Part shown: one piece after another, positions 15,349 through 54,028 of the stretch
Position numbering within the stretch: position 1 is the stretch's first letter
How the letters are laid out: each line of letters starts with the position of its first letter
NCBI GenBank assembly: GCA_024867545.1
Contig: JANFNE010000004.1
Span: 1,240,001 to 1,304,000 of the forward strand
Direction: 5' to 3'
Source: Phytopythium helicoides
Taxonomy: Eukaryota; Oomycota; Peronosporomycetes; Pythiales; Pythiaceae
DNA: 64,000 bases
Notes under the pieces: generated by a model
What the model saw: the letters and a program-made list of their open reading frames with translations, nothing else
Told to the model about the DNA's origin: nothing
The model's database searches: none
Position numbers and translations under genes: made by a program

Positions 15349-17838
15349 TCAAGTCCCGCTGGACAGCACAACGTGTGCCTGCTTGCCTGCCTTTTGCTTC
15401 TTCTCGAGCACTTCCATCATCTTTGTGCTGCCCTCGCCAGAAAGCAGTTTTTGTGCCTCCAGTTCCTGCTTGAGCTGGCGCAGGCGTTTGTCTTGCTTTT
15501 TCTTGCCCGGACCGTGTCCATGGAATTTGTACGAAAGCATGCGGAAGGCTTCCTTTTTGGTGAGGAGGCGGCCGAACTCATCGCGGTAATCGAGCTTCAC
15601 GCCGTCCTTGACGCGGAGCTCCTCTTCCACATTTCGGTCGCGTGCGTCGTTCGCACGACCAGCCTGTCGCTCGACGCGCGTTTGACGCAGATCGCCCGTC
15701 TTTCTGAGTAGCGCCAGTGTGGCTCCCAACCCATTCGACACAAGTGGCTGCTCCTCGCCCCACGCATCCTTGTCACCACCTTCGTCCTCGTCGTTCTCCT
15801 TCTGTTCACTATCGCTTGCTTCTTCTTTCATCTCCTCATCCTGATTGTGCGAAGCTCCATTCGTGGTGCTGACCTTGGTGCCAGAAGCCGCGCTTGCAGA
15901 AAGCAAACCGTTCCCTGATGAGGCAGCTTGGAACTGAGCCGTGCGCTTCTCCATAGCATTCCGCAATCGCGTCTCAAAGTCTGTTGCATCATTGAAGACA
16001 ACCGTTTTTGTGGCGGCGCTCATTTGTCCTGGCGCTTGACCAAACACGTTGCCAACGGGTGCTGCGATCACGGGAGCTGTTGACTCTGTGGTAGGCGTTG
16101 AACCAGTAGTGACTGGCTTCGGCTCCGCTGCAACAGTCTTAACTAGCATCGCGATCCGATCTTCACTTGCAGGACCCACCGTAATGGGAGCAGCAGCAAA
16201 TGTGCTTGATTCAGCTGCCTGACTAACAGCCTCCTCTTCTTGCTTCTGTTTGGCCTCCTGAAGTCGAGCAAGGCGACGTGCACGTGCAAGTGAGGCACTC
16301 AGCTCGAGATCCATGGCCTCATCTACCATTGCGGCTTCTTCGTCGACACCAGCAGCCCTGCGCTTTCGTTTGGGCTGCTTCTGGACAACTTGTCCGTCCT
16401 TAACAGCAAGGTCAGAAGCAGCGAGGGCATCTGAAGCAACAGCGCTGGCCTTCTCACGCGCTTGCTGGAAGCGGCGAAGACCTTCTTCATCCTCTGCAAT
16501 GGTTTTATCTTCGTCGTCACTGTCTGCGTGGCGGCGCTTGCGTCGGCCGCGGTCCCGAGAAGCAGCAGCATTCTTCTTCGCTTCCGCTTCGAGTTGTGCA
16601 ATGAGTGAAGACGAGTCCTCCTCTCCATTCCCTTCTGCTCCATTTGAGCTAGCATCCTGCTCAGCAACCTCTGGTTCTTCCTGGTGCCGCGACTTCTTCT
16701 TTTTCTTGCGGAGTTTCTTGCCCTTCTTTTTGAACTGCGTCTCCATCTCCTCGGCGGTGAAGTACTCATCCACCGCCTTGGTACGGTCCATGGTGAGAGA
16801 GATGACTGCAACGCCGTCGTCATCCAAGTCCGCATCATCGTTTCCTTCATTGCCAACCCCGCGCGCTTTTGAAACACTGATTGTACCCTGGGCATCAAGG
16901 GTGAATTTGCGTGCGTCTTCAGCTGCGCGCGCGTCGTCTTCCTCGTCGTAGTGCGAAAGAAGTTTTTTGCTCGTACGCTTCTTGGATCGCGGCTTACCCA
17001 CCTCAATGAACTCGTCGTCATCATAGCCGGTGTACACTGGCATCAAGGCTCGTTCTGCCCGAGAGTGCTGCGCGTCGCGCCGGTCGCGCTCGCTCATTTC
17101 AACGTTCACGAGCTCGTCGTTGTCGTCGTTCACTTCATTTCCGTCGGCCGCCAGCACGCTCGTGTCCTTGAGCGTGAGCACGACCTCATGCCCCTCTTCA
17201 AACGAGTCTGCAGCATGCCCGACCGTCATGCCAGCCAGGGCCGATGCGTCGTACGTCTCGACCTTCTCCTTCTTGTTGCCTTCGTCCGCAGGCGCCGCCT
17301 TGGGCTTGACGCGGGACTGCTTGACCCACGAAAGCGCGTCTCCCGCAGTCTCCTGGCGCAGCATCTCGCCGAGCGACTGTCCCGCGAGCTTCTGCGACAG
17401 CTCGCGCTTCTTCTTGGACTGCGCGAGCGCCTGCTCGATAGCCGCGCGCTCGCGCTCCTGCGCCACCTGCGCGCTCGTCTTCTGCAGGTTTACCTCGGCC
17501 GACTTCTTCGGCCCCACGGACAGCGGCTTGAGCCCCAGCTGCGCGCGCAGCTTGTTGGTCTCCTCGATGCTCATGGAGATCTCGCCGTTCTTGTCCTCGC
17601 CCTTGGCGCCCGCGCCCGCGTCGCTGCTCGAGCGCTCGCGCTTCTCCTCGCGCCGCCGGCCCTCGTCCCCTCGCCGCCCGCGGCTCCTGCTGCGGCTGCG
17701 GCTGGCGCTGCGGCGCCGCGACCGGGAGCTGCGCGCGCGCTCTCGTTCTCGCTCTCGCTCTCGCTCTCGCTCGCGGTGCGAGGGCCGCGCAGGCCGCGGG
17801 CGAGAGCGCGACGCCGAGCGGCTCCTGCTGCGCGCCAT
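15349..17838 (-). CDS. SART1: SART1/Snu66, U4/U6.U5 tri-snRNP protein
   Basis: Single exon, 829 aa. The N-terminus is RS/RE-rich. It is followed by the SART1 signature SIEETNKLRAQLGLKPL (residues about 75-92). The C-terminus EFGRLLTKKEAFRMLSYKFHG, GPGKKKQDKRLR and EVLEKKQKAGKQAHVVLSSG is diagnostic. The protein is needed for recruiting tri-snRNP to the pre-spliceosome. Long acidic and lysine-rich segments alternate in the middle. Length matches the family (about 800). It sits in the same window as a PRP40-like factor, but I see no operon-like link. Confidence 0.95.
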   Translation of the reverse strand: MARSRSRSASRSRPRPARPSHRERERERERERERARSSRSRRRSASRSRSRSRGRRGDEGRRREEKRERSSSDAGAGAKGEDKNGEISMSIEETNKLRAQLGLKPLSVGPKKSAEVNLQKTSAQVAQERERAAIEQALAQSKKKRELSQKLAGQSLGEMLRQETAGDALSWVKQSRVKPKAAPADEGNKKEKVETYDASALAGMTVGHAADSFEEGHEVVLTLKDTSVLAADGNEVNDDNDELVNVEMSERDRRDAQHSRAERALMPVYTGYDDDEFIEVGKPRSKKRTSKKLLSHYDEEDDARAAEDARKFTLDAQGTISVSKARGVGNEGNDDADLDDDGVAVISLTMDRTKAVDEYFTAEEMETQFKKKGKKLRKKKKKSRHQEEPEVAEQDASSNGAEGNGEEDSSSLIAQLEAEAKKNAAASRDRGRRKRRHADSDDEDKTIAEDEEGLRRFQQAREKASAVASDALAASDLAVKDGQVVQKQPKRKRRAAGVDEEAAMVDEAMDLELSASLARARRLARLQEAKQKQEEEAVSQAAESSTFAAAPITVGPASEDRIAMLVKTVAAEPKPVTTGSTPTTESTAPVIAAPVGNVFGQAPGQMSAATKTVVFNDATDFETRLRNAMEKRTAQFQAASSGNGLLSASAASGTKVSTTNGASHNQDEEMKEEASDSEQKENDEDEGGDKDAWGEEQPLVSNGLGATLALLRKTGDLRQTRVERQAGRANDARDRNVEEELRVKDGVKLDYRDEFGRLLTKKEAFRMLSYKFHGHGPGKKKQDKRLRQLKQELEAQKLLSGEGSTKMMEVLEKKQKAGKQAHVVLSSGT

Positions 17839-23245: not shown

Positions 23246-23730
23246 ATGAGTGAATTCGGAACGGAACGGCGACTACCGAAATACAGTGGTATACATAAAC
23301 GAAGAGAAACGAAACCCTGTCATACCTTATCGTTGTCTTTTTGATCGGTTTTGGCAGTTTTAATGTATTCTTTTCGCGTCCCCGAGGTTTTTTTCATGGC
23401 GTCCAATGGCTGCCATTGGTGTACAATCGGAAAGCGCGCGGGCCGAGCGCGCGATCCACCGGCGCCTCCCGCCGCTCTCCGCCGCCCCCCGCCTGCCTCC
23501 AGGGCCCGCCGCGCCCTCAGCGCCTCGCCCGCCCCCAGCTGCGCGTCCTCGCGACTTCCCGGCGCGCCAGGAGCCCCCCGAGCCGCCGCACGAGTGCGTG
23601 AGCCTTTCAACCTCCCTCCAGAGGCATCGCCACCCGCCAGCAAGCACACGGAGCCAATCGATTGTCTGTGTGTTGTGTTGCGCTACGCAGTGGCGAGGCC
23701 GACCGCGATCTCCGACCCCAGACGACAGGA

Positions 23731-26454
23731 ATGAGCCACTACGGACCTCCCCCAGGCGACAATGCGCAGTCGGCGCCGGCGTTCCGCGGTGGGCCGCCTC
23801 CGTTCCGCCCAGGGGCCTTTGTGCCGCCCAGGGGACCGCCGTTCCGTCCACCGTTCGCGGGCGGACCCCCGCCGCGCGGCCTTGTGCCGCCGGCGTTCGG
23901 GGATCCCAACTTCCGACCGCCGCCATTCCAGCCTGCAGCTGCTGCGTTTCCTGCGCGCGGACCGCCGATGATGCGGCCTGGAATGCCTGTAGTGTCGCCT
24001 CATGGCGTTGTTGGAGGCTTCTCGGCCCCGATGCAGCAGGTTGCAGTGCCCGTGGTGGCGCTTCCCGCAGGGTGGAGTGAGCACATGACGCCACAGGGCG
24101 TCAAGTACTACTTCAATGCGGCAACAGGAGTCAGCTCGTACGAGTTCCCAACTGCAGTGGCAGCAAGCGCGCCGATCCCAGCAGTCGAGCCAGCGCCAAC
24201 TCCAGTGTCGTCGTCCGCGTCCAGCGTCCCTAAAGTGTGGGTCGAGTACACGGACGCAGACAGCGGCAAGCCGTACTACTACAACACGATAACCAAAGCG
24301 ACAGTCTGGGAGCAGCCCGAGGAGTATCGCATGCAGAAGGCCCGCGAGCAGGTCGAGCGCATGCAGAGCGTGACGAACGCTGAGGCGGAAGTAGAGGCTG
24401 TGGAGCGCTTGAAGCGCGAGAAGAAGAAGCGCGAGGCTGAAGAACGCGCGGCTGCTAAACGGCACAAGGAGGACGAGGAGAGCCAAACCAAGTTCAAGGA
24501 GATGCCTCGTGACGAGCGTATTGCAGCGTTCAAGCAATTTCTGACCGACAAGGAGATCTCTCCTCAGTGCAAATGGCAAGACGCCCAGCGCCAGATTATG
24601 CGTGAAGGATGGGACGCAGACCCGCGCTGGAGGTATGCTCTGTCCAGTGTCGGCGAGAAGAAGCAGACGTTCGCCGAGTACTGCACGCAGGCGATCAAGC
24701 AGCAAAGCATTGACAAGCGCCGGCAGGTCAAGAAAGCGCGTGAAGAATTTTGCGACCTCTTGGCTGCCTTTGAGTCGAGCCTGCTTCCACCCCCAACAAG
24801 CAGTAGCAGTGGCAGCAGTGGCAGCCGAAGAAAGCCATCTTCGAGTGGGCCTCGCCCCGTGGACTGGGAGCAGGTTGCCGATGGTAGCGCGTTCTATCCG
24901 CTTCGAAAGGACCCGCGCTGGGCTGCTATTGACGATCTGAAGGAGAAGCAACAGCTGTTCGACGGATTCATGCTCGAAATTACGCGCACGCAGAAGCAGC
25001 GGTACGCCAAGCTACAAGAAGAGCTCAAGGCAGCGTTTGTCGCTCAGCTGCGCGTAAAGATCGAGCAGAAGGAGTTTGAGTTCCACAGCGAGAAGCGACT
25101 GGATAGCGATGAGAAGAAGCGCGTAATGGACTTGCTGCACAATGAGGAAGCGGTGAAGCTCGAGTCTGCAGAGGACACAAAGATCGCGCTGGCGACCATT
25201 GACAAGTATGAAGTGTACGACTGGACGGAAGAGCTTCTACATGATATTCGCGAGGAAGAGCACGCAAAGCGTAAAATCGAACGCGAAGCGCGCAAACAGC
25301 GCGAGACACAACTTTACCATGAGCTGAAGAGTCGATGCGAAGCAATGGCTGAGGCACGAGAGATCACGGCTGGCAGTACGTGGGATCAGGTGTCGCCCTT
25401 ACTACCCGGCGCGCCGACTGAGCAACCTGAGGACAGTACCGAGCAGCCTTCCGTTGGCGAACCAGTAGTTCTCAAGGAAAAAACTCGTCGTCGGGTGTTC
25501 GAGAAGACTGTCCGAGGATTGCGACGCCGACTGGAGCCCGCTGAGCAGGTTATCATGTCGTATATTTCTCGCGCGGACCCTCCATTGGTGGCAGTGACAG
25601 AAACGACAACGTTTGCCGCATTTACTCGCGCTCTTGAGGGTGGCATTCGCTCTGTACTGGATGGGAAGACCTTGGAGGAAGGTGAAGAAGTCCCCAGTGG
25701 TGAAGAAGAGGACGCGATTGACAAAAAGGAGGATGATTCGGTGGATGAGAAGAAGGCGATCAGTGCGGAAACCGAAACATCCGAAATTGAAGTGATTCTG
25801 GAGCGGACTGTGCAGCAGCGCAACCTGACGGATGACACACCCACGACGGACGCAAGTGGCACTGAAGAGCTGTCGTTCCCCGACGTGGTGCGTGATGTGT
25901 TTAGCATGCTTGTCGCGATCGCGAAGGACAAGAAGAACCGCAAAAACAGCATCCAGAATCATGATGAAGGGAAGGGAGGCGAGCGTGAGTCTCGTCGCAA
26001 GCGCCGTCGTCGACGAGCAAGCAGCGCGTTGTCATCGCCATCACGAAAGTCGCGGTCTCGCTCTCACTCTCGATCCCGCTCTCGGTCTCTGTCGCGGTCA
26101 GTTCGCCGAAAACTGTCCCGCAGTGCAAGTCGCAGCCGCTCACGGAGTCGTCGCGATAGCCAAGACGTGGTACTTGCTCCGTGGGAGCAACTACCAGCGG
26201 GCTCGACGCAGCCGAGCGACAGCAATGCTCTGAACGGTGGAAGTGGTGCGCCAGTTCCGATGGAAGTGGACGAGCTGTCAAGATACTCGCCGACGCGACC
26301 TCGAGTGGTGTTATCCGCCGAGGAGGAGGCAGCTCGCGCAGAGGAGATTATTCGTCAAGCTCGATTAAAGCTGCTTGAGAAGCAGCAGAACATGGACGAC
26401 GAAGACGAGCTGGAAGAGGGCGAGGAACTTGAGGAAGGAGAGGAGCCCGAGTGA
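23731..26454 (+). CDS. PRPF40: PRP40-like splicing factor (WW-FF protein)
   Basis: Single exon, 907 aa from MSHYGPPPGDN at 23731; the frame is open 23 codons upstream. Residues 1-105 are Pro/Gly/Phe-rich. WW1 starts near 111 (LPAGWSEHMTPQGVKYYFN), WW2 near 168 (WVEYTDADSGKPYYYN). FF-type repeats follow from about 260 (DERIAAFKQFLTDKEI, then KKAREEFCDLLAAF). The C-terminus carries an SR/RS stretch (about 765-810) and ends in acidic EELEEGEEPE. PRP40 bridges U1 snRNP and the branch-point proteins. Transcription elongation factor TCERG1 shares the layout and is the alternative; the order of two WW then FF with an RS tail favours PRP40. Confidence 0.88.
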   Translation: MSHYGPPPGDNAQSAPAFRGGPPPFRPGAFVPPRGPPFRPPFAGGPPPRGLVPPAFGDPNFRPPPFQPAAAAFPARGPPMMRPGMPVVSPHGVVGGFSAPMQQVAVPVVALPAGWSEHMTPQGVKYYFNAATGVSSYEFPTAVAASAPIPAVEPAPTPVSSSASSVPKVWVEYTDADSGKPYYYNTITKATVWEQPEEYRMQKAREQVERMQSVTNAEAEVEAVERLKREKKKREAEERAAAKRHKEDEESQTKFKEMPRDERIAAFKQFLTDKEISPQCKWQDAQRQIMREGWDADPRWRYALSSVGEKKQTFAEYCTQAIKQQSIDKRRQVKKAREEFCDLLAAFESSLLPPPTSSSSGSSGSRRKPSSSGPRPVDWEQVADGSAFYPLRKDPRWAAIDDLKEKQQLFDGFMLEITRTQKQRYAKLQEELKAAFVAQLRVKIEQKEFEFHSEKRLDSDEKKRVMDLLHNEEAVKLESAEDTKIALATIDKYEVYDWTEELLHDIREEEHAKRKIEREARKQRETQLYHELKSRCEAMAEAREITAGSTWDQVSPLLPGAPTEQPEDSTEQPSVGEPVVLKEKTRRRVFEKTVRGLRRRLEPAEQVIMSYISRADPPLVAVTETTTFAAFTRALEGGIRSVLDGKTLEEGEEVPSGEEEDAIDKKEDDSVDEKKAISAETETSEIEVILERTVQQRNLTDDTPTTDASGTEELSFPDVVRDVFSMLVAIAKDKKNRKNSIQNHDEGKGGERESRRKRRRRRASSALSSPSRKSRSRSHSRSRSRSLSRSVRRKLSRSASRSRSRSRRDSQDVVLAPWEQLPAGSTQPSDSNALNGGSGAPVPMEVDELSRYSPTRPRVVLSAEEEAARAEEIIRQARLKLLEKQQNMDDEDELEEGEELEEGEEPE

Positions 26455-26704: not shown

Positions 26705-29700
26705 ATGAGCGCGGCGCCTGTCGCCCGCCCTCGCGTACGCGCCATACGACTGCGTTTGCGCGACTTCCGCGTGCGTGGGCGCATCCATTTCATAGGCCTC
26801 AACTGTAGCCCGCGACGGCGGCTCACGCGCGGTTCTCCGGGTCGCAGGGCCAGAGCACAAGCTTCAAGGTGAAGCGCGACGCGCCGCTGGAAGATATGGG
26901 GCTCGTGGTGGCGCAGCGGCTCGCCGTGCCGCGCGAACGCCTCGTGTTCAGCCACAGCGGTGGCGCGTGGCTTGACTGTAGCCGCACGCCGGAGCAGGTG
27001 GGCTGCGTTGGCGATCGTTTGGTGTCGAGCTGTAGATTGTGGTAATGACATTCCAATGACGCAGCTTGGGCTCCCCGGCAACGCTGACATCGACTGCGAT
27101 CTGGACGTGGACATGGACACGATTCAAGAGACAATACCGGAGGATTTAATGCAGAGGCTCGGGGGAGGTGACGATGTCGTTTTCCGCATTCGAGGACTGG
27201 CGGTAATTGAGTTATTAGCTTGAAAGTGACGGGGATGCGGATCGATACACTGAGGCTGTGCATGCCGAGTGGTGTAGGAAGCTGTCACTCTGGTTGACGT
27301 CCCGCAACACTTCATCGTCAAGAAAGGCGAGACGCTTGCTAAGTTTCTGGACATGTACGCGGTACGGAGGAGGCGGTACATTTGCGTGCTGCGGTTCACT
27401 TTCAACGGTCAGCGCATCATGGGGGTAGAGGCGATATCAAAGGTGCGTACTGAGCGATATATCCCTTGTGTGTGTGTAAGACTACTTGGCGGATGGAAAA
27501 GCCTCATTTGTGCCATTGCAGCTTGGTCTTAAGAACGGTGCGACCATCGAGTGCGAATCCATGTACGACTGCGATTCTTGCTCGCCGTGTCAACTTGCCC
27601 CGAGTCGCACCGCAAGCAGTCGAGAAGCAGTTATGAAACCAGAAGACTTCTCTTCCACGGATACTATCACCTTTCGTATCAAGTATAAGGTGGGCTGGAC
27701 TCTCCTGGTATTATAGGTCTCATTTATCACCCTGACAATGATTCTTGGCGCCGCCATAGAATGAATTCATGATTCCTTTCACACGCCGCCCTTCAGACAC
27801 GTTCAAGGGTGCATTTCAAGCATTTGATGCTCGTACTGGCTTGTATCAATTCAAATCCCGATTTTGGCACGAGGGCTGGCTCGTTGATGGGCGTGACACT
27901 CTAGAATCGGTCCGTGCTAGGAATGTTGGGTTTTGCGACGATGATCTAACTTTGTTTTTGTTGTTGCACTTTGCTCAGATTGGGCTACAAGACGGAGATA
28001 TTATATATTGTGGATACACCTTGGAGGGTATGTGCGCAATATGTGCATGGAGACAACAGCAATCAGTGCCACTGAAGCTTCGAATCAGAGATGAGGTTTG
28101 TCTGCTCGTCGATTGCTGTTTGGTTGCATCATATTGATTTGAATAATATACACTGCATTACAGTGCGGTGACGAGTTCGAGTTCAAGATTACACCAGACA
28201 GCCCTTTCAAAGAGCTATATGTACAGTATGCTGATCGAATTGGGGTATCCTTCGTGGATGTACTGTTGTTTCGTGGGGAGCATCGCATATTGCTGAAAGA
28301 AACACCAAAGAAGGTAGGTTATTCATCAAATGTCCGAACTACACATGCTTCCATTTTGCAGGCGGAGTCCACACGAATCTGATACGTGCTTGATTGCCAG
28401 CTGAAGCTGACGGATTCCAGCGTTCTTACGTCAATAGTCTTTCGTAGCAACGCTTGTGTGTGCTGCAAATCTCGGTCTATGGACATAGCTGGGGTTCGGG
28501 TCCGTGGTAATAAAACCGCATCGCTGGTTTCAAGAAATGTCATTGTAACCGTGCGAGTCGTGGACGAGGTAACATCGATGTGCTCAACGTTTGGAGAGAT
28601 GAAAGTGTGAAGCTAACTCATTTTCGTGTGTCGCGTAGTTTGGTGTCGAGACTGCCCTGAAAGTATGGAGCAGTACAAAAATGCGCTCGGTATTCGAGGC
28701 GTATTCCGAAGCTCGCATGCGAGTCATCGACGGGGTCATGTTCTTGTTTCGAGGAAAGCTTGTTCATTATGATGATTCACCAGCCTCGGTAAGAGACGAC
28801 TCATCCAACTTGCCCATTACTTGCTGTTCCTGACCACACTTTTTTGTGGCTTAATCGATGTAGCTTCAACTCACAGATCATGATGTTATCATCGTTGGAT
28901 CGCAAACTACCATGAAACTTTGTGGAGGGTGTAACCCAGCACAGGATATTCGCTCGCACATCAACCGAATTGAAGGGCGTATGGAAGATCACGATGGTAT
29001 GTAGATAGCGCTTCAGTTGTCAACGTACAAAATGATGAACACGTCTGTGCAGGTGGCCAATCTCCCAGAGGTGTGCTCAGCGTGACCCTCTATCAGGAAA
29101 CAGATGGAGGGTTGACCGAGTTTGTGAGACTCTGGCAGCAAGAAAGCAGGCGGCGTGCCACGAATGACCTGGTAAGTTTTATTCTGGTTTGGTGTGAGTG
29201 GCTATTACTAACCGGCGACTGTGTGCTTTAAAAAAAAAAAAGCATGCAAGTTTTAAAGATTACCCAGAAGGAACTGGTCTGATCGATTTATCAAATACAA
29301 GTGAATGGCCCGTCCAACTGGATCAAGAGCAACTTGAAAGACTAAGAAAAGAGAACAAAGCTATCGCTGCCAAAGCTGCGAAAGCAGAGGAAGAAGCAAG
29401 GGTAGCCAAACGTGATGCTCAGCACAGAACCGTATTGGCAAAACATGCGGCAGAACAGCTAGCGTCATTGAAACAGTTATTAGCTGCCGCGGTGGAGGCT
29501 AAAGAGCAAGCAGAAGTTGTGGCAGCGAAGTCAATTCAGACAGCATCCGATTCGAGACAAAAGGTTGCTGGAGAGTTTGCAAAAGCAAAGAAAGTATTGG
29601 CTGATGCGGAAAGAGCGATGATTCGCGCGAGAGATGAAGCGGTAAAAGCGAAGCTCGAGGCGGAAGCTGAGATCGCAAGAGCCAAGGCGGAAACTGAAGA

Positions 29701-31857
29701 AGTTAGAAAGAAGGCTTCCGAGGCGGAAGAAGAAATGAAGAGGGCGTTGGTCTGTGCAATGACAGAGGCGAGAGAAGCAAAGGCGAGAGAGTCACGAGCG
29801 AGAGAGGATCGATCCGATATACGAAATGTCACGCTTGTGCTAAGCGGTGAGGTGAGGATAATTCAGTCACATCGGTACGACTTGCCAGGGTACTGATGCT
29901 GTTCCCTTGAATCAGAATGGCGAAGAGATGGTAGTACTCACACACGGGGCTACCCAACTCCACCAGCTTGTATCCCCTTTTGCTAAGAAATTCGGGTTGA
30001 AGCCAAGCTCCATTGAGCTTCACTGGAACGCCAACCGGCTGGAACTTCATGAGACTCCTGACTCGGTGAGGCTCAGATTTGAACAAGGCTCATTTTTGTG
30101 AATCACTTATCATGCGATCACTCCGCAGGTTGGACTTTGTGACGGTTGTGTACTTGAATGCGTCACGGGGCTAGCCGGGTTTTGTCCTGCGTGTGCCTCG
30201 CGTAAGGTGAGCCACGACGGTTCCCTAGCAAGACCTGGCGCGAAGCGATCAGTGGGCAGGCTGTCTGTTCTTATTGTCGAAGAGGTAAAGTGTTTTGGAG
30301 CGCACACGGAGGCAATTCGACTAGCTTGGGACTTACGTGAAGTAATGGTCTCCAGGATTTAAAAGAAACCCAAGCTACAGTTCCAAATCGAGTCAGTATG
30401 GGCATTGTGTTTCAAGCATTTCAGGCCCATCGATCGCGGGAGAGTGAGCAGCTAATGTACTTCTACCGCGGAGTTCGAATACGTGATTCGCAAACTCCAG
30501 AATCGGTACGCACGAAATGAGTGAAATGACCAGGCTCCTTGCACTAAAGCAAGATTGTTTGTTAGTTGGAGTTGGGAAACTCTAGCGTCTTGTTCTGTGC
30601 TCGAACAGACCGGACATCATCAGCAATTTGTGATGAATGTTTTGGACTCGCTGAAGCAACAACTTGGATCGATATTGCTGACGAAAGCACAAGTACAAAG
30701 GACGAAGAGGAGCCTCGTACGAACATCTGTAGGTGGTATCTCAAGCAAGCAAAAGTCTAACATATGATGCTATTTGGTCGCAGGTAACATTTACGCGCGC
30801 CAGATTAAAATGCAGAGCCACCCATCTCGCCTGGACCTTACACTTCGACAAAGTATTCTAGGCGATCGCCCCGTTGCCATAAGCTCAGAAACACAAGCGG
30901 TACATCGTGAGGTATGAACGCTGGGAAAGTCTAGTTGATGTTTCTGCAAACAGTTTTGTAAAATGCTGTGAGACAGATTGTGACACCAGAGCATCGACAC
31001 AATCCAGGTAATGAAAGACATGAGGCTATTCCAGCACAAACGGCTACTCGACATGGGAAACGATTGGTTACCATTCATATCAAGGGCATCGTAAGTGAAA
31101 AGTTTGATGAGTATAGGAAATTGCGCTGACACTGCTCTGGTTTCATAGGACGGAAATGACGTGTACTATAAAGTGAAGAGCACCACCAAGCTTCAGAAAG
31201 TGTTTGATGCGTACATGGAGAGGATCGGTGCTGGGGCTAGGCGCCTTCGATTCCGGTGCGGCGACAAGTGGATCTTTGGCAACGATACACCGAGTCAGGT
31301 GTGGCTCTGTGGACTTTTGAACGCGCTAAGGCGAAGCTTGCTGACCAAGAAACCTTTGTAAATAGCTTCACCTACGTGAGGAGGACGTCATCGAGTGCAT
31401 CGAGGCGGACACGGAAGAATCGAGTCTTGTGACGCCTGATGATGAGAGCGTGAATCGACAGTCAGTTGTGAGAACTACAGGCCAGGTAACTCTCCTGTTT
31501 CGCGATAGCGATACGGTAAGGATGACAGCAAGTGATGTCTACCGATCTTTCGTCTGATGGATGCTGGTTCAGGAGGGAGCCGATGCGTATTTCACCCTGA
31601 AAAGGACAACCCCACTACAGAAGGCGTTCGATCGCTTCGCATTGCACTGTGGGGGCCAGCAAAGGGATCTCGTCTTCATGGTTTCTGATGGGAGGCGATT
31701 GTCACGCGAGCAGACACCCGAAATGGTGAGTTGAACATGGTTGGAGCGAACTTGTATTTGACGCTCCCTTAGCTAGAGTTGTGCTCTGCAGGCTGGCCTT
31801 CAAGATGGCGACAAAGTGCTGTGCTTTGGGACTCGGCCAGACCAATCGCGTAGGTAA
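26705..31857 (+). CDS. Tandem SUMO-like (Rad60-SLD-like) poly-ubiquitin-fold protein, 23 exons
   Basis: Exons: 26705-26770, 26848-26997, 27065-27202, 27278-27442, 27522-27689, 27760-27909, 27979-28095, 28164-28313, 28362-28568, 28639-28788, 28864-28996, 29053-29171, 29243-29851, 29916-30065, 30129-30284, 30356-30505, 30566-30728, 30784-30911, 30977-31090, 31149-31298, 31366-31515, 31573-31725, 31792-31857; about 1,233 codons, all junctions in frame. Each repeat reads: beta1 (AIRLRLRD; VVFRIRGL; VTIHIKGI), a FKVKRDAPL-type strand and helix, then TPE[SQ] and xGLxDGDxIxC, as in SUMO TPKELGMEEEDVIEV. Core exons 2, 4, 6, 8, 10, 14, 16, 20 and 22 hold nine clear copies; exon 12 starts a tenth that runs into a coiled coil (exon 13, about 572-774). 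CxxC motifs follow most repeats. No C-terminal di-glycine is present, so it is not a conjugated modifier. A TGA sits at 28380-28382 in exon 9; using an acceptor ending at 28400 would skip it. Function unknown; a scaffold binding SUMO-interacting motifs is inference. Confidence 0.8.
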
Positions 31858-37420: not shown

Positions 37421-39933
37421 ATGCCTTCAACGCGTCGCGTGCTCGCTCTGGCGCTGCTGGCGCTGGCCTTCGCTGCTCCGTCGACCGCCCAGAGCTCCTC
37501 GGCCTCGACGTCGACTGGCGCCTGCTCGGCGGCTCCATCGACGCTTTCGACGACCTGCGGCGGGCTCTGCGACTCCGGACAGTCCTGCGTCACCTTCAAC
37601 GCCAGCGACTCGTGCACCAGCTGCGTCACTTCAAGCGAGGACGCATGCCAGTACTTGTGCTTGGCGACCGAGGGCCAGAACGACTCGGTGGTTGCCAACG
37701 TGGGCTACTTTGTGCTCCTCGTGCCTTTCGGAGAGTACGAGAGTGACAGAGAGATCGCCGAGAGCGCGGAAGACCCGCTGTACGCCGAAAAAGTTGCGAG
37801 TCTTTCCGACAACACGAGCGAGTTCGCGCATGTCAGCAACGACATCCTCAAGAACATCGCGCCGCTCGAGCTGCTCTCTACGACGGGATTGCTGTACGGT
37901 TGATCGCATCGGATGCTTTGATTGATTTGTTCAATGCTGACTTTGGTGCTCTTTTGACAGAATTATCTCTGGCGGCTCGACGTATGACATGAGCCTTCGA
38001 AGCAAGGTGGTGGAGCTCGACTTATCGTCAACGATGCTCACTTCCCAGACGCAACTGAAGGGGGCAGATCTTCGGAACGTCAACCTCGAGACTGCGGTTG
38101 TAAACATCCCCGAGATTTTCCCAAGTTCGATGTACGCTCTCGGCCTTATCAACGGTCTGCTCTCTACCTTCCCCTCGCACCTCGGCAACATGAGCAATCT
38201 CCAATATTTGTACGTGGGAAGAGACGACAGGTGTTTTGATATTTGGGATCTGACGATCTGCTTTTCAGGTATATATCGCTCAACTACGTCTCGATGGTCA
38301 ACGCGAGCGACGGCATCGATCAGCTCCTTTACCTGTACGCTATATTGTTATAGCTGTTGGGATATGAAATTGTTCTCATACTCGGAACTCGCAGCGACAT
38401 GCAGTACAACAATGTTACGAGTTTTGAGGGCAATTTCCCACTGCTCGAGACGCTGTAAGCCGAGTGAATCATCTAATCGGAGGTCGCGGCACACTAACTT
38501 CTCTTTTTTGTGGCTAGGGACCTGCGTAACAACAACCTTACCGCGATCCCAGACGTAATCTACACGTACTCCAATCTTCAGACTCTGTAAGCGGTCGAGC
38601 AACGCAATTTCACGTGCCTTTATAAAAGTCTAACAATTCGTGTGGCTGCAGCTATATGAAGTACAACTTGCTGGAGACACCGACGTACACTACCGCGCAA
38701 GCTGACTTTTTGTCGGCGCTGACTGAGTTCGATCTCACTCGTGACGATTTTGCGAACGAAGCGAACTGCGACACATCGAGCAAACGGGTCATTCACTCAC
38801 TTACCGTGTGCATCGTCGAGGACGCAGAGGTTTCATCGAGCTCTGGATCAACTGCTATCTCTGACGGTAGTAGTGGTGGGAGCAGTTCCTCGACTACTGT
38901 TATTATTGTTGCTGTGGTTGTAGGGCTCGTCGTTTTAATTGGTATCGTCATTGGAACCATTTGGTGGCGAAAGCGACGGAATGCAGGAGCCACTCCTGAC
39001 TACACTACCTCAACAGCCCCTTCTGGACAAAGCACTCTTGGTAAAGCTCCTATTGTGACCTCAGTGTGGACCGATCAAGAGCTACTCCGCTTCCAAGTCC
39101 GTCTTGATGACATTGAAGATATTCGCCTGCTTGGAAGTGGCGCCTACGGCGTGGTCTACCTCGTGCGTTACCGGAATTCCCAGCTGCTGGCATCGAAGAG
39201 ACTCCGAGCAGAGACGGCAACACGCGACAACGTCCAGAAGTTTATCGCTGAGATCAAGCTCGTTGCGGAACTTGAGCATCCAAACATCGTGAAATTTGTT
39301 GGCGCTGCATGGAGTATTGAAGCTAACCTGCAGGCACTTTTCGAGTTCATGGAGAATGGAGATCTGCGAATGTTTCTCACCGAGTCGAACACACCTCGCC
39401 ACTGGACAAAGGTCAAGCTACAACTCGCCATCGACATCATCGAAGCACTTGTGTACGTCCACTCCTTCCAGCCACCACTCATTCACCGCGACCTCAAGTC
39501 ACGCAACGTGCTCATTTCGGCCGACATGGAAGCCAAACTCACAGACTTTGGAGTGTCGAGATACCAGTCAGTACAGGAAACCATGACAATTGGCGTGGGA
39601 ACGGGTCGATGGTTGGCACCCGAGGTGATCAATGGCAGCAACGACTACGGTCCGCCAGCTGATATTTACTCGTTCGGCTGCGTACTGTCGGAGCTGGACA
39701 CACACACGATCCCGTACGATGGGATGACTGGTGACAATGGAAACCCACTGAATGACATGACACTGCTTCATATGGTGGCGAGCGGTGTGCTGCGTCCGAC
39801 TTTCACACATATGTGTCCTCCCACGGTGCTGGAGCTGGCGCAGCTGTGTATGGACCAGGACCCTGCTAAACGCCCGTCAGCGGTGGAGATAGCTTACGTT
39901 CTCCGCAGCTTGCCCAAGGAGATGTTCGCGTAA
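37421..39933 (+). CDS. LRR receptor-like kinase 1 (TKL)
   Basis: Six exons: 37421-37893, 37961-38209, 38269-38334, 38395-38454, 38518-38586, 38652-39933; 732 aa, every intron phase 2. Signal peptide (RRVLALALLALAFAAPSTAQ), a Cys-rich cap with CGGLC and CQYLCLATEGQND, VLLVPFGEYESDREI, then LRRs, each small exon carrying one repeat (LDLRNNNLTAIPDV). TM near 385-410 (VIIVAVVVGLVVLIGIVIG) and a stop-transfer WRKRR. Kinase: GSGAYGVVY, SKRLR, HRDLKSRN, DFG, APE, all present. It should sense an extracellular ligand and phosphorylate inside. Ligand unknown. The kinase tail shares an identical tract with kinase 3. Confidence 0.9.
39508..39719 (+). repeat. Gene-conversion tract, identical to 45587-45798
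   Basis: 212 nt identical by eye to 45587-45798 in kinase 3, covering DFG through the segment before the activation-loop end and helix F. Outside it the two genes differ at many sites, including synonymous ones. Confidence 0.75.
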
Positions 39934-43451: not shown

Positions 43452-46015
43452 ATGGCCTCAGCCTCCGTTGTGGCTCTGCTGCTGGTTCTAGCGACCTCAG
43501 TCCAAGCCCAGTCGTCATCTTCATCTTCATCTTCAGCCTCGTGCTCGGCGGCTCCGTCGACGCTGTCGTCCTCCTGCGGTGGGCTCTGCGCCTCCAACGA
43601 GACCTGCGTCACCTACAACGCCACGGCTCTGTGTGCGGGATGCGTGTCGTCCAGCGACGACCCATGCCAGTACCTGTGCCTGGCGACCGCGGGGGAGAAT
43701 GACGCCTGGATTCCCGACACGAATTACTTCGTGCTGCTCGTGCCCTTCGGCAGCTACCAGAGCGAGGAGGAGATCGCGGAACGCGCGGTGAATCCCGACT
43801 ACGACGCCACTCTTGACGCCACTGCGGACAACACGAGCGCCTTCGCGTGGGTCAACAATAATGTGCTCACGGCTGTCGATGCACTCGAGGTGCCCTCCGA
43901 CGTGACACTCTTGTGTGTATTTTTGCTGCTGTCTTGAGAAAATGGAGATTGGTATGGCTGACGTGATGGCTGGTGACTGCAGCGCGTTGGCTGGCGGCAA
44001 TACCCCAGACTACGTGTTCAAAAGCAAGGTTGTGCAGCTCAACCTCTCGTCCGAACTGATCACCACGCAGACGCAGATTGAGGCCGTGCGCCTGCTCAGT
44101 ATCGACCTCAAGGATCAAGTTGACGACTTGCTGAGCATGCTACCGAGCTCCGTGTCGGCGGTCAACCTCGGTAACGTGCTGCTCAACAAATTCCCGACAA
44201 GCCTCGGAAACAACACCAACATCATCAACCTGTACGTTCAGCGTTCAAGTGCAACTTTGTCAGATTGGGATTGTGCTGATGTGTTTCTGGCAGGCATTTG
44301 AATTCGAACTACATCACTCGAGTCAACGCGACCGACGGCATTGAACAGCTGCAGGAGTTGTACGTGCTACGTTGGTGCTGGAACCGTTCACTCCGTCGAA
44401 AAGCAGCAAACTGATGGATGATTGTTCCAGAACGCTGCGAAACAATGAGCTGCTCAGCTTTGAAGCTAGTTTCCCACTTCTCACATACTTGTACGCCACT
44501 TTTGCTACCAATGTTGCTACATCCTCTGTGACTAATCTCGTTATCTCGGTGGTGATTCGCTAGGGATCTGACCTACAACAACCTTACGGCCATCCCGGAT
44601 GTGGTTTTCACGTTTTCCAACCTCCAGACACTGTGAGTTGTTTGTAGTTACCCTATTGGCGGTCTGAGAACTAAAACAATCCGTGGTGCCTGCCTGCCCT
44701 GCTTGCTTGCAGGTATATGACGGGGAACTTGCTGGAGTCGCCAACATTCACGTCTGCGCAGGCGGATTTCTTGGCTGGTCTCACTACATTCGATCTTCTG
44801 CAAACCGATTTCGCGTACCAACCAAACTGCAGCGCAGCAGCAAAGCGTGTCGTACAGACGCTGAACGTCTGCATCTCGGACTACTCGGCAGATGGATCCT
44901 CCCAGTCAGACTCAGGAGCATCATCAAGTTCGGCTACTGAGACGAGTTCTGGATCAAGCAGCTCGACGACCACCATTGTTGTTGTCGTGGCTGTCGTCGT
45001 CGTCGTTGCAATCCTCGGAATTGTCGGTGTAATCTGCTGGCGGAAACGTAAAAATCCTGCGTCGAAAGAGGACTCTGCTACTGTGTCAACGTTGAACACC
45101 AATCAGAGCATGAAGGGGCCGATTATTACGTCCGTCTGGAGCGATGAGGAGCTTATCCGCGTGCAAGTCCGCCTCGAAGATATTGAGGATATTCGTCTGC
45201 TCGGGAGTGGCGCATACGGCGTAGTCTACCTCGTTCGATACCAGAACTCGAGATTGCTTGCGTCTAAGCGACTCAAACCTGACATCATGAAAGACGCGAA
45301 GCGAGATCAGGCGCTTCAATTCATTGCCGAGATCAAACTCGTTGCCAAGCTCCGTCATCCCAAGATTGTTGAATTTGTTGGCGCTGCATGGACCATTGAA
45401 TCCGATATCCAGGCTCTTTTCGAGTTCATGGACAACGGAGATCTGCGCACATTCCTCACCGAGTCGAACACACCTCGTCACTGGACAAAGGTCAAGCTAC
45501 AACTCGCCATCGATGTCATCGAAGCACTTGTATACGTCCACTCCTTCCAGCCACCACTTATTCATCGGGACCTCAAGTCACGCAATGTGCTCATTTCGGC
45601 CGACATGGAAGCCAAACTCACAGACTTTGGAGTGTCGAGATACCAGTCAGTACAGGAAACCATGACAATTGGCGTGGGAACGGGTCGATGGTTGGCACCC
45701 GAGGTGATCAATGGCAGCAACGACTACGGTCCGCCAGCTGATATTTACTCGTTCGGCTGCGTACTGTCGGAGCTGGACACACACACGATCCCGTACGAGG
45801 GTATGACTACCGCGACTGGGGAACCGCTTCAAGAAGTTGCTATGCTTCGTATGGTGGCGAGCGGTGTGCTGCGTCCGACTTTTACTCACATGTGTCCTCC
45901 GACGGTGCTGGAGCTGGCGCAGCTCTGTTTGAGTCAAGATCCTGCCAAACGTCCGACGGCAGTGGAGGTCGAGTATGTTCTTCGCGATGTCTTGAAGAGC
46001 ATGTATCCTGCGTAA
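43452..46015 (+). CDS. LRR receptor-like kinase 3 (TKL)
   Basis: Six exons: 43452-43912, 43983-44231, 44294-44359, 44431-44490, 44564-44632, 44713-46015; 735 aa. Signal peptide MASASVVALLLVLATSVQAQ, serine-rich linker, cap with CGGLCASNETC and DPCQYLCLATAGEND. Exon lengths 249/66/60/69 equal those of kinase 1. TM near 390-415 (TTIVVVVAVVVVVAILGIVG), kinase with GSGAYGVVY, HRDLKSRN, DFG, APE. Closest paralog of kinase 1 in the kinase domain, partly through gene conversion. Both ectodomains differ clearly, suggesting different ligands with shared signalling output. Confidence 0.9.
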
Positions 46016-46550: not shown

Positions 46551-47834
46551 TCATGGGGCAGACACCAAGCCCATGATTAGCTCCACGCGCGAGTAGCGCG
46601 CACACTCCGCCGACCACCGAATATTTCCAAGCACAGAGCGAGCGACGGTTCTCAAAACTATGCGAAGCACTTTGGCAGCCTCATCACCCTCTCTATCCTC
46701 AGTCTCGACAGCGATACTCTTTAGACCTTGTTGACCCGCCAGCTTCTCCATGTCCTTCTTCATGGCTCGGACGAGTGTATTGCAGTGATCAACGGTGATA
46801 TCCACTGCAGCATCGAAGCTCCCACCAGTCTCTCCGTGCTGTCGCTGGTACTCGACGAAGTTCTGCAAGAATCCAGCTTCGTCCTTGTCGCGGTCGTACG
46901 ACAGGATGTCGTTCACGAGACAGATGTGCAGCCCTGCACTGACGAGCAGCGACGTGTCGCCCTCCATGTCTTGCTGCTGCTCTCGATCAGTGAGGAGCTC
47001 GACGAGCTCCGATGAAATGGGCAGACCCGAGGCCACGAACATGTGCACGATGGTGAGTGTCGTCGCTCCCTCGCGGTACCGGTGATGCAGAAGTTGGCTC
47101 ATCGGCACTCTTGCCATGTCGAGCTGCCGAATGGCGAACGAATGCGCTCCCCACGTGGCACACTCACGAGCAAACCAAGCGTAGGCTGCGTCCGAGCCTG
47201 CAGTCACGCGCACCTGAGCGCAGGCCATGGCTAGAAGCCGCGCGTGAGCGTCCATATCTCGGCTGCCAAAGTCCTTGAGCCACTCGACGGTCCGATCGAA
47301 GAGCTCTAGAACCGGATCGAAGCAGTCCTCCTCGCCCGGTGTCAGATGCTGGAAAGCGCTGCCAGCCCACAGCTCGTCTACAAGCTCGGGAATCGCTCGC
47401 CAGGCCTCCGCCAGCAGATTTACGTGGGCCGCATCTGCATCGCTGCTGTCGCGCACGTCGTCGGCGCCGAAGAGCGCGGTGAGGAACGTGAACTGCGCGA
47501 CGACGCCAGCGGCGGACGCCGTCTCTGGGCTCCAGTAGCGCGCGAACAGGTCGAGCCTGACCTTGTCGAGGAAGCACGCGGTCAGCGCTCGTCGCTCACG
47601 CTCGACTAGCAGGTCGCCGCAGCAGATGTCGACGATGCGCTCGTACTGGTCCTGCGCCTCGCCACTGACGAGCGCAAATTCGACGTCGTCGTTGGAGGCC
47701 GCGAGCGTCGCGACAGAGAGCCCCGCGAGCATGTCGGCCGGCAGCTCAAGTCGTGGCGAGGGCTTGTCGACTGTTGGCGGAGCTTGGGGGCCGGAAGCGG
47801 CTGCGTCGCAGCTGGCTGAATCGTTGGCAACCAT
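46551..47834 (-). CDS. Microbial-type class I terpene synthase
   Basis: Single exon, 427 aa. Helical throughout. The region LFARYWSPETASAAGVVAQF precedes an aspartate-rich ALFGADDVRDSSD (DDVRD about 125-129), and the NSE/DTE triad is well formed in CLVNDILSYDRDKDE (Asn308, Ser312, Asp316). The C-terminus has NIRWSAECARY, like the GNxxWSxxTxRY end of bacterial and fungal sesquiterpene synthases. It would ionise a prenyl diphosphate with Mg2+. Product unknown. No transit peptide. Such enzymes are rarely reported in oomycetes; transfer from bacteria or fungi is possible. It lies tail to tail with the 75-aa gene. Confidence 0.78.
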   Translation of the reverse strand: MVANDSASCDAAASGPQAPPTVDKPSPRLELPADMLAGLSVATLAASNDDVEFALVSGEAQDQYERIVDICCGDLLVERERRALTACFLDKVRLDLFARYWSPETASAAGVVAQFTFLTALFGADDVRDSSDADAAHVNLLAEAWRAIPELVDELWAGSAFQHLTPGEEDCFDPVLELFDRTVEWLKDFGSRDMDAHARLLAMACAQVRVTAGSDAAYAWFARECATWGAHSFAIRQLDMARVPMSQLLHHRYREGATTLTIVHMFVASGLPISSELVELLTDREQQQDMEGDTSLLVSAGLHICLVNDILSYDRDKDEAGFLQNFVEYQRQHGETGGSFDAAVDITVDHCNTLVRAMKKDMEKLAGQQGLKSIAVETEDREGDEAAKVLRIVLRTVARSVLGNIRWSAECARYSRVELIMGLVSAP

Positions 47835-51666: not shown

Positions 51667-54028
51667 ATGCGTCTGTTGCTGGTCGCAGCACTCGCTGCGG
51701 CTCCCTCGAGGGCCCAGGGGGCCTGTTCGGCACCTGCGGCCACACTCTCGACCTCCTGCGGCGGCCAGTGCGACGAGCACGTCCCGTGCCTCGTGGCGGC
51801 GTCGGACTGCTCCGTCGAGTGCTTCCCGACGGCCTACGACTCCTGGGGCCTGGACTTCCTCGTCCCGTTCGGCACCTATCGCAGTGCGTCGGAGGTCGCA
51901 GCGAGAGCCCAAGTGACCGACGAAGTGTTTGACGCACAAGTCGCCGCGCTGTCGAATGACACGGACGGACGCGCAGCCGCCAACAACGATGAGCTCACGG
52001 AGCTCGGCACGCTCGACATTGGCTCCACCACGGGCATGTGAGTAGAAGAAGTGGCGAAGTGGTGTCATCAGCGTTATCATGGGGGAACTGACGCACGGTG
52101 ATCATAGGGCTGTCTACGGCGGATCGAGTACGACGGGATGGGTGCGGGGCAAGGTTGCAGGCGTGAGGATCTCGGACGACGGGACTTTTGTGGCGAACGC
52201 GTCGTCGCTCACGCTGCTGTCGCTCGAGAACCTCGAGCTTGGACCGGACCTCGGTGATGAGTTCGCCACCAAAGTCCCCACCAGCCTGACTGAGCTGTAC
52301 CTGCGCAACAACGCACTCGAGTCGTTCAGTCTGTCGTCACTACCTAACCTGCGCATTTTGTAAGCCTGAGATCGCCTAGTATGTCGTGTGGACAGTGGAT
52401 GCTGATGCTGTATGATGCTACAGGAGCCTCGCGGAAAACTACCTGACGACGTTTGAAGTCGAACTGCAGAGTCTCGGGGTCCTCTATCTGACCAACAACT
52501 CGTTCTCAGCCATTCCAGAGAGCGTTTACAGCTTGCCAAGACTCTACGCATTGTGGGTTTTGAGCTCTTCAAGTGTGCTGCACGAACTCCCCGCTAATAC
52601 TTGTGCTTATCTGTGAGCAGTTATATGTCGGGCAACACACTCGCCAATGCGACTATCACTCAGGAGCAGTTCGACTTCCTTGCCGGCTTGGACACGCTGG
52701 ACCTGACAACGGCAGACTTTGCGACCACTGCAATTTCAGACTGCCCTTCTGACTCGATGAAGACGCTTCGTGGGCTGACATTCTGCATCTCGGAGCTGAT
52801 GGCTACCAGTAGCAGCTCGTCATCCTCCCCTTCATCAACTTCTTCGTCCTCAGCATCGTCCCAAGCATCATCAGCTTCACCATCATCATCGTCGTCAAGC
52901 AACACAGGAATTGCAGTTGGCGCCGCGATAGCTGGGGTGGTGGTACTCGGAGTAGCGATTGCCATCGTCCTTTGGATTCGTCGTCGCAAGCGGAACGCCG
53001 AGGACAAAGGAGCTACCGGCACCATCCACAGCAACCTGGAGTCGAATGCTACGACGGCGACAAGCGGCTCCAGAGGCACCGGTAGAAATCGCAGCATTCA
53101 GATGTCGTTGTGGTCCGATGCCGAGCTCATGGCCGTCCAGGTGCAGATCGAAGACATTGAAGATGTTCGACAGCTCGGTAGCGGCGCGTTTGGTGTCGTA
53201 TGGCTCGTGCGGTTCCGCAGCTCGCAGTTGCTGGCGTCGAAGCGGCTTCTCCCATCTTCAAGCAGCGATAGTGACGACTTGGTGCGCGTGCATGACCTCC
53301 TAACTGAGATCAAGCTGAACGCGCGGCTTGACCACCCGGCGATCGTTCGGTTCCGTGGCGCGGCTTGGCACTTCCAGCGTGATCTGCAGGCTTTGTTCGA
53401 GTTCATGGACGGAGGAGACCTGATGGACTATCTGCACTCGCGGCGACCAACGCCCCGAGGCTCCACCGGTGCAGGAGGCTCCGGCACTGGCAGCTGGACT
53501 CGCGAGAAGCTGCTCATGGCCATCAACGTGGCCGATGCGCTCGTGTACGTGCATTCGTTCTCACCTCCCATCGTGCACCGCGACCTCAAGTCAAAGAACA
53601 TCCTGCTGAACGCGAGCGAGAGCAATGGCGTCATTGCCAAGGTGGCCGACTTTGGCGCCGCGAGACCCAAGTCGGTTCACGCAACCATGACAGCGGGGGT
53701 CGGGACTGGTCGGTGGGTCGCCCCCGAGGTGCTCGCGGGCCAGAACGACTACGGCCAGCTGGCTGACGTGTACAGCTTCGGCGTCGTTCTCACAGAGCTC
53801 GACACGCACGTGCTGCCGTACGACGACTTTGGGTCTCCCGTCATGCCGCTAGTGGCCGTGTTGCAGCTCGTGGCGGCCGGCAGTGCCCGCCCGACGCTGC
53901 GAAGCGACTGCCCTGGGTCGCTACGCTCGCTCATTGCTCGCTGCTTGTCGTTCGAGTCCGAGGAGCGGCCGTCGGCCCCTGAAGTGGCCTACGCGTTGCG
54001 CACGATCCGGAGAGACCTGGGGTGGTAG
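51667..54028 (+). CDS. LRR receptor-like kinase 5 (TKL), reduced ectodomain
   Basis: Four exons: 51667-52037, 52108-52359, 52424-52552, 52621-54028; 719 aa from MRLLLVAALAAAPSRAQ. The cap is shorter and lacks several cysteines of the others (CGGQCDEHVPC and SDCSVEC remain; the DPCQYLC box is missing). The 66-nt LRR exon is absent, and the 60 and 69-nt LRR exons are fused into one of 129 nt (60+69). A long serine tract precedes the TM (VGAAIAGVVVLGVAIAIVLW). Kinase has a Gly/Ser insert after about 280 residues of the exon (STGAGGSGTG), HRDLKSKN, DFGAARP, APE. Confidence 0.88.

What the first reader, a model, noticed from the sequence alone, without database searches (positions are those of the whole stretch)
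26705..31857. A protein of about ten tandem SUMO-like domains
The assembled 23-exon gene encodes repeated beta-grasp units with the SUMO/Rad60-SLD signature: a beta1 strand, FKVK-type strand, helix, then TPE-x-x-GLxDGDxI. SUMO proteins are normally single domains and Rad60/NIP45 have two. I know of no described protein with about ten. The lack of a C-terminal GG argues against conjugation. It may be a multivalent scaffold for SUMO-interacting-motif proteins or a decoy of SUMO signalling. What is seen: the repeats and junctions. What is inferred: the role.
Basis: partly seen in the sequence, partly recalled or inferred. Interest (0 to 1): 0.92.

Follow-up and report, generated by a model that had tools for sequence, protein, structure and literature searches.

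The report
Protein with nine SUMO-like domains
An oomycete gene encodes one long protein carrying nine diverged copies of the small protein tag SUMO that can no longer be attached to other proteins, so it probably works as a built-in string of SUMO-shaped docking modules, a layout not seen in the papers found here.

Summary
26705-31857 (+) is one 23-exon gene. One correction: intron 1 is 26771-26847, so exon 2 is 150 nt, like the other core exons. The protein has 1220 aa and an intact frame. It carries nine SUMO-like domains (SLDs), not ten: five, a 170-residue Ala/Glu/Lys/Arg-rich stretch, then four. Each domain is recognised by a profile of the other eight (23-58 bits; best shuffle 11). Pfam Rad60-SLD scores 1.5e-43. 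The modelled core exon of D3, which Pfam misses alone, superposes on SUMO1 at 1.8 A. All 18 introns flanking core exons are in phase 0 and seven of nine core exons are exactly 150 nt, the mark of exon duplication. The closest sequence found elsewhere in the genome is its own SUMO, 40 kb away. No domain has a SUMO-type GG end; six of nine have a CxxC near where SUMO has GG. SIM-groove residues survive fully in D8 and partly in D1/D2; the acidic E2-facing surface survives best in D3, D8 and D9. Most likely it is a non-conjugated SUMO-mimic scaffold with specialised modules; this role is inferred. Two protein searches found no relative. It is a new variant of the multi-SLD (RENi-like) kind.

The parts
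26705..31857 (+). whole gene, 23 exons, 22 GT-AG introns of 55-87 nt, 1220-aa protein
   Evidence: spliced frame intact; branch-point-like sites in 14 of 22 introns
26771..26847 (+). intron 1 (corrected, 77 nt); exon 2 is 26848-26997, 150 nt
   Evidence: same frame as the 38-nt alternative, but gives a 150-nt core exon and a normal intron length
26738..27106 (+). SLD D1 (aa 12-86), core exon 2 (150 nt)
   Evidence: leave-one-out HMM 30.3 bits; Pfam 13.5 bits, below cut-off
27170..27563 (+). SLD D2 (aa 108-187), core exon 4 (165 nt)
   Evidence: LOO 32.4 bits; Pfam 7.6e-4, 19.7 bits, below cut-off
27660..28020 (+). SLD D3 (aa 220-293), core exon 6 (150 nt); E at the SUMO2 D63 position and QDGD
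   Evidence: LOO 35.6 bits; no Pfam hit alone; AF2 core superposes on SUMO1, 50/50 residues, 1.8 A
28066..28445 (+). SLD D4 (aa 309-383), core exon 8 (150 nt)
   Evidence: LOO 40.8 bits; Pfam 9.7e-6
28536..28908 (+). SLD D5 (aa 414-489), core exon 10 (150 nt)
   Evidence: LOO 42.0 bits; Pfam 9.2e-6
29312..29821 (+). 170-residue Ala/Glu/Lys/Arg-rich, proline-free, probably helical stretch (aa 582-751), in exon 13
   Evidence: composition; heptad periodicity no better than shuffles (220 of 1000 as high), so coiled coil is not shown
29822..30170 (+). SLD D6 (aa 752-825), core exon 14 (150 nt)
   Evidence: LOO 23.4 bits, the weakest; Pfam 5.6e-6
30255..30610 (+). SLD D7 (aa 854-928), core exon 16 (150 nt)
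   Evidence: LOO 36.0 bits; Pfam 0.022, below cut-off
31061..31410 (+). SLD D8 (aa 1039-1113), core exon 20 (150 nt); all four SIM-groove basic positions kept
   Evidence: LOO 57.7 bits; Pfam 3.3e-10; SUMO2/3 chains 48 bits; AF2 core on SUMO1 at 1.2-1.3 A; groove table
31480..31839 (+). SLD D9 (aa 1137-1215), core exon 22 (153 nt); D at the SUMO2 D63 column (next to a 1-residue insertion) and QDGD; no GG tail
   Evidence: LOO 47.2 bits; Pfam 3e-5
27570..27590 (+). CDSCSPC after D2 (two overlapping CxxC)
28033..28044 (+). CAIC after D3
28455..28466 (+). CVCC after D4
28921..28932 (+). CGGC after D5 (the only GG within 13 residues after a domain)
30183..30194 (+). CPAC after D6
30629..30640 (+). 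CDEC after D7

Best explanation
A type-II (never conjugated) multi-SUMO-like-domain scaffold. Shown by sequence: one intact gene, nine SUMO-family domains with the exon pattern of a duplicated two-exon unit, no SUMO-type GG tail, CxxC just after six domains, a long proline-free Ala/Glu/Lys/Arg-rich stretch in the middle. Inferred: the string mimics a SUMO chain that no SUMO protease can take apart. D8 (with D1 and D2) docks SUMO-interacting motifs; D3, D8 and D9 offer the acidic face that SUMO uses for the back of Ubc9. The protein thus brings SIM proteins and SUMO enzymes together. The CxxC tails probably bind zinc in pairs, stiffening or pairing neighbouring modules. The most diverged modules (D4-D7) are spacers or bind other partners.
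For: Nine domains and no tenth by profile, each supported by the other eight. Pfam Rad60-SLD 1.5e-43, 7 stretches. The profile of the nine scores about 60 bits per SUMO2 module but only 5-10 bits per ubiquitin module in the PDB chains shown (made with the first-model D1). AF2 core models of D3 and D8 superpose on SUMO over 50 of 50 residues. The genome has its own GG-ending SUMO, its own Rad60-like gene and matches to the C48 protease family, so this looks like a separate extra component. All nine domains are closer to the own SUMO (20-36% identity) than to ubiquitin (8-17%); eight of nine are closer to the SUMO than to each of the three Rad60-like SLDs, and D6 is about level (20% against 14-19%). 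The tree puts them with SUMO, at weak support 76/82. Groove and acidic-surface table. CxxC: 8 against a shuffled mean of 0.70, 0 of 20000 shuffles as high; 6 of 7 separate sites lie within 13 residues after a domain, binomial p 4e-6, the 13-residue limit chosen after seeing the sites. RENi SLDs bind Ubc9 through an acidic residue (passages).
Against: No binding data and no partner. Six of nine domains keep two or fewer of the four basic groove residues, so valency for SIMs may be low. No relative was found, so no conservation or selection can be shown. One intron of the Rad60-like gene lies within a codon of the TPxx intron site (reading), a hint that goes against a pure SUMO origin. The zinc role rests on the motif alone.
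Confidence: 0.5

Rival explanations
1. The SLDs are generic ubiquitin-fold building blocks of a lineage-specific scaffold that has lost SUMO-type binding; CxxC zinc sites and the helical stretch matter more than any SUMO mimicry.
For: D4-D7 have lost most groove and acidic-surface residues; repeats are only 15-30% identical to one another; the CxxC tails follow D2-D7 and not D1, D8 or D9.
Against: D8 keeps all four groove basics and is 36% identical to the own SUMO, as is D1 with three.
Confidence: 0.3
2. A RENi-like SUMO E2 adaptor: D9, like the last SLD of Rad60/Esc2/NIP45, recruits Ubc9 to substrates held by the other domains.
For: D9 has D at the column of SUMO2 D63 and QDGD, as RENi last SLDs carry an acidic Ubc9-binding residue.
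Against: The genome has a separate Rad60-like gene with an acidic residue at that column in its last SLD; the poly-SLD protein has no N-terminal polar region; D9's residue lies beside a one-residue insertion.
Confidence: 0.13
3. A poly-SUMO precursor cut into single modifiers, like polyubiquitin.
For: Head-to-tail beta-grasp units.
Against: No SUMO-type GG at any domain end; the only GG within 13 residues after a domain is inside CGGC after D5, and a GGG stands 20 residues after D1, just before D2; repeats are 15-30% identical.
Confidence: 0.02
4. Artefact or pseudogene: exons of unrelated genes or a decayed gene.
For: No RNA evidence; no relative found; the exon 12/13 junction has an odd A-rich acceptor.
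Against: Intact frame over 23 exons, 22 GT-AG introns with an excess of branch-like sites, 18 of 18 introns flanking core exons in phase 0; domains split across introns rejoin correctly nine times.
Confidence: 0.05

Closest known systems
RENi family (Rad60, Esc2, NIP45)
   Same: Non-conjugated SUMO-like domains in one chain, no GG; acidic residue in the last SLD (D9, uncertain).
   Different: RENi typically has two C-terminal SLDs, the animal members after a polar region (PMC549199, first of four parts and passages); here nine from residue 12 on, with CxxC tails and a long Ala/Glu/Lys/Arg-rich stretch. A three-SLD Rad60-like gene is present separately.
DSUL and SUMO-v of plants
   Same: SUMO-type beta-grasp without GG, DSUL in tandem.
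   Different: DSUL has two domains (PMC11371177, passages).
SUMO of the same genome (C35:1312199-1312444, -)
   Same: Nearest sequence found in the genome, 20-36% identity to each repeat.
   Different: Single domain, coding frame unbroken by introns, QVGGARV tail.
Engineered polySUMO
   Same: Several SUMO domains in one chain.
   Different: Synthetic: five SUMO domains with Gly-Gly-Ser linkers that phase-separate with polySIM (PMC10859935, passages); here natural, nine diverged domains.
Polyubiquitin
   Same: Head-to-tail beta-grasp repeats.
   Different: Ubiquitin repeats are near identical and carry GG (general knowledge); the profile of the nine scores ubiquitin at only 5-10 bits per module.

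Membership tests
Rad60-SLD domain (PF11976) | Whole protein above the curated score | tested here: met
   146.9 bits against cut-off 23.8, 7 stretches; alone, 5 of 9 domains pass (D4, D5, D6, D8, D9), D1, D2 and D7 score below, D3 has no match
SUMO fold (beta-grasp) | Core superposes on SUMO | tested here: met
Conjugatable SUMO | C-terminal GG after beta5 | tested here: not met
   0 of 9 domains; within 13 residues after a domain only CGGC after D5
RENi (Rad60-Esc2-NIP45) | Two C-terminal SLDs | tested here: not met
   nine SLDs over the whole length
RENi (Rad60-Esc2-NIP45) | Polar low-complexity N-terminal region | tested here: not met
   D1 starts at residue 12
RENi (Rad60-Esc2-NIP45) | Acidic Ubc9-binding residue in the last SLD (Rad60 E380, Esc2 D430, NIP45 D394) | tested here: inconclusive
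   D at the SUMO2 D63 column in D9, beside an insertion; that E380/D430/D394 fall in this column is from recall
RENi (Rad60-Esc2-NIP45) | Binds Ubc9 | not testable with these tools
   needs a binding assay
Type-II (non-conjugated) ubiquitin-like proteins | Ubiquitin-like domain in a larger protein, no usable GG | tested here: met
SIM-binding SUMO mimics | Basic beta2-alpha1 groove | tested here: inconclusive
   4 of 4 basic positions in D8, 3 of 4 in D1 and D2, 0-2 in the six others
Zinc-binding CxxC proteins | Bound zinc | not testable with these tools
   motif only

The most novel reading that the evidence does not exclude
A natural, genetically encoded poly-SUMO scaffold: SUMO was copied, lost its GG tail, gained CxxC zinc knuckles near the place of the tail and was multiplied ninefold by exon duplication. 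Modules then split the SUMO surfaces among themselves (SIM groove in D8/D1/D2, E2 face in D3/D9), so that the protein nucleates SUMO-type assemblies without any conjugation.
Probability: 0.3. Interest if true: 0.85.

Novelty: new variant of a known kind. Interest (0 to 1): 0.66.

Why it matters
In the listings and the passages read, the multi-SLD proteins described have two SLDs. Nine in one chain would be a natural counterpart of the synthetic polySUMO used to study condensates, and would let one ask directly what SUMO surfaces do without conjugation. The nine modules are a natural mutant series in which SIM-groove and E2-face residues were kept or lost in different combinations.

Tried and rejected
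Intron 1 of 38 nt (my first model) was rejected for 26771-26847, which gives a 150-nt core exon and removes a 13-residue insertion from D1. A tenth SLD was looked for over the whole protein with filters off and not found. Coiled coil: heptad periodicity of aa 582-751 no better than shuffles (220 of 1000), so not claimed. Poly-SUMO precursor: no GG. Tree of the repeats: inner branches unresolved; single origin of the nine neither shown nor excluded. Protein-database searches with the whole first-model protein (the 7996 candidates sharing most words, E<=0.001) and with its residues 240-520 (1130 candidates, E<=1) found nothing. The same database does hold SUMO of Phytophthora, Peronospora, Globisporangium, Bremia, Peronosclerospora, Aphanomyces, Achlya, Saprolegnia and Albugo (120 of 462 listed), but candidates need shared exact 5-residue words and 0.55-1.75 times the length, so diverged or mis-split relatives would be missed. 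Papers: I saw nothing on more than two SLDs, or on SLD proteins of oomycetes, in titles and abstract openings (18 listed of 18; 20 of 319; 4 of 4; 5 of 5; 5 of 8124, so it says little; 8 of 8; 30 of 30).
Full report
The window lies in an oomycete genome of 49 Mb (100 contigs; window = C35:1240001-1304000). The lineage call rests on 64 elicitin-domain matches, with 0 of 14 control genomes ringing, and on SUMO identities of up to 90% to named oomycetes. The species was not identified. Two long open frames with an Oxidored_molyb domain, as in nitrate reductase, speak against an obligate downy mildew (that such species lack the enzyme is recalled).

Gene. Reading 26705-31857 gives 23 exons and 22 GT-AG introns. 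My first splice had a 38-nt intron 1. The alternative acceptor at 26847 keeps the frame, makes intron 1 77 nt (all introns then 55-87 nt) and makes exon 2 exactly 150 nt. The protein is 1220 aa without internal stop. 14 of 22 introns hold a CT[ACG]A[CT] site near the 3' end, against a shuffled mean of 4.05 (0 of 2000 as high). The two other frames of the same exons (earlier exon 2) hold 45 and 62 stops.

Exon logic. Each domain is cut twice at like places, after beta1 and after the TPxx position. The core exons are 150 nt in 7 of 9 cases, 153 and 165 in the other two, and all 18 introns flanking them are in phase 0; of the other four introns two are in phase 1. This is what repeated duplication of a two-exon unit would leave. 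The own SUMO's coding frame has no intron. In the Rad60-like gene, as I splice it, three introns fall after beta2, unlike here, but one in its last SLD falls within a codon of the TPxx site (reading). That last intron may be shared and is a hint against a pure SUMO origin.

Origin. In the own genome the only other match at E<=1 to either part of the protein given is SUMO at C35:1312199-1312444 (-), E 1.4e-10, about 40 kb away. Each repeat is 20-36% identical to that SUMO and 8-17% to ubiquitin. Eight of nine are closer to the SUMO than to each of the three Rad60-like SLDs (7-22%); D6 is about level (20% against 14-19%). The tree places the repeats with SUMO at weak support (76/82, long branches) and resolves next to nothing within. 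The nine need not come from one copying event.

Tails. No domain ends in a SUMO-type GG. A GGG stands 20 residues after D1, just before D2, and CGGC after D5. CxxC occurs 8 times (shuffled mean 0.70, 0 of 20000 as high). Of 7 separate sites (the two overlapping ones after D2 counted once), 6 lie within 13 residues after a domain, behind D2, D3, D4, D5, D6 and D7 (p 4e-6, the limit chosen after seeing the sites); D1, D8 and D9 have none, and the seventh site is inside D6. In SUMO the GG lies 6-7 residues after the beta5 Cys; here the first Cys lies 6-11 after that Cys or, in D4 and D5, after its aligned position (counted by eye). Zinc binding is inferred.

Surfaces. Of four basic SIM-groove positions (recalled), D8 keeps 4, D1 and D2 keep 3, D3, D4 and D9 keep 2, D5 and D6 keep 1, D7 keeps 0; the own SUMO keeps 4. 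Of five acidic positions used towards the back of Ubc9 (SUMO1 E67 and 83-86 in PMC12687455, passage), D3, D8 and D9 keep 3, D5 keeps 2, D4 and D6 keep 1, D1, D2 and D7 keep 0; the own SUMO keeps 4. Position 63 itself is acidic only in D3 and D9. So modules seem to have divided the surfaces, and four domains (D4-D7) look poor for both. This speaks for a scaffold with few, placed docking sites rather than a uniform nine-valent SIM sponge.

Function. Best reading: a non-conjugated SUMO-mimic scaffold (0.5). RENi proteins set the precedent: they carry SLDs without GG and bind Ubc9 through an acidic residue (PMC549199, PMC7891725, PMC10497417, passages); in Rad60 SLD2 the SIM cleft is obscured (PMC2946365, passage). 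The closest physical analogue is synthetic polySUMO, five SUMO domains that phase-separate with polySIM (PMC10859935, passages). Membership in RENi fails on domain number and N-terminal region, and a separate Rad60-like gene exists here.

Novelty. My searches (titles, abstract openings and some passages seen) showed no natural protein with more than two SLDs. Two searches of a protein database that holds many oomycete SUMOs gave no relative, within the limits told under Tried and rejected.

Noticed in passing
L009 4250-5900 (own genome C1, about 1287250-1288900, minus strand): Second multi-SLD gene: a Rad60/NIP45-like protein with three SLDs behind a Ser/Asp/Glu-rich region; PF11976 3 stretches, 1.8e-27; the first and third SLD keep an acidic residue at the SUMO2 D63 column. 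Spliced by eye.
   Followed up: partly
own genome C35:1312199-1312444 (-), L010 3169-3660: The genome's SUMO, coding frame unbroken by introns, tail QVGGARV, about 40 kb from the poly-SLD gene.
   Followed up: partly
window 23602-26454 (+) and 15349-17838 (-): Two spliceosome-type genes close by: a WW/FF-domain protein just upstream (PRPF40-like, name recalled) and a SART-1 family protein.
   Followed up: no
window 29230-29242: Acceptor of intron 12 is preceded by a run of A instead of pyrimidines; it lies inside the intron, so the frame is not touched.
   Followed up: no
window 38656-39933, 44717-46015, 52601-54028: Three protein-kinase frames with a similar lay-out (kinase domain at the C-terminal end), perhaps a family; a terpene-synthase-like frame lies at 46551-47834 (-).
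   Followed up: no
own genome, several contigs: 19 matches to Peptidase_C48 (SUMO-protease family) in six frames; whether these are true Ulp/SENP genes or transposon-borne was not checked.
   Followed up: no
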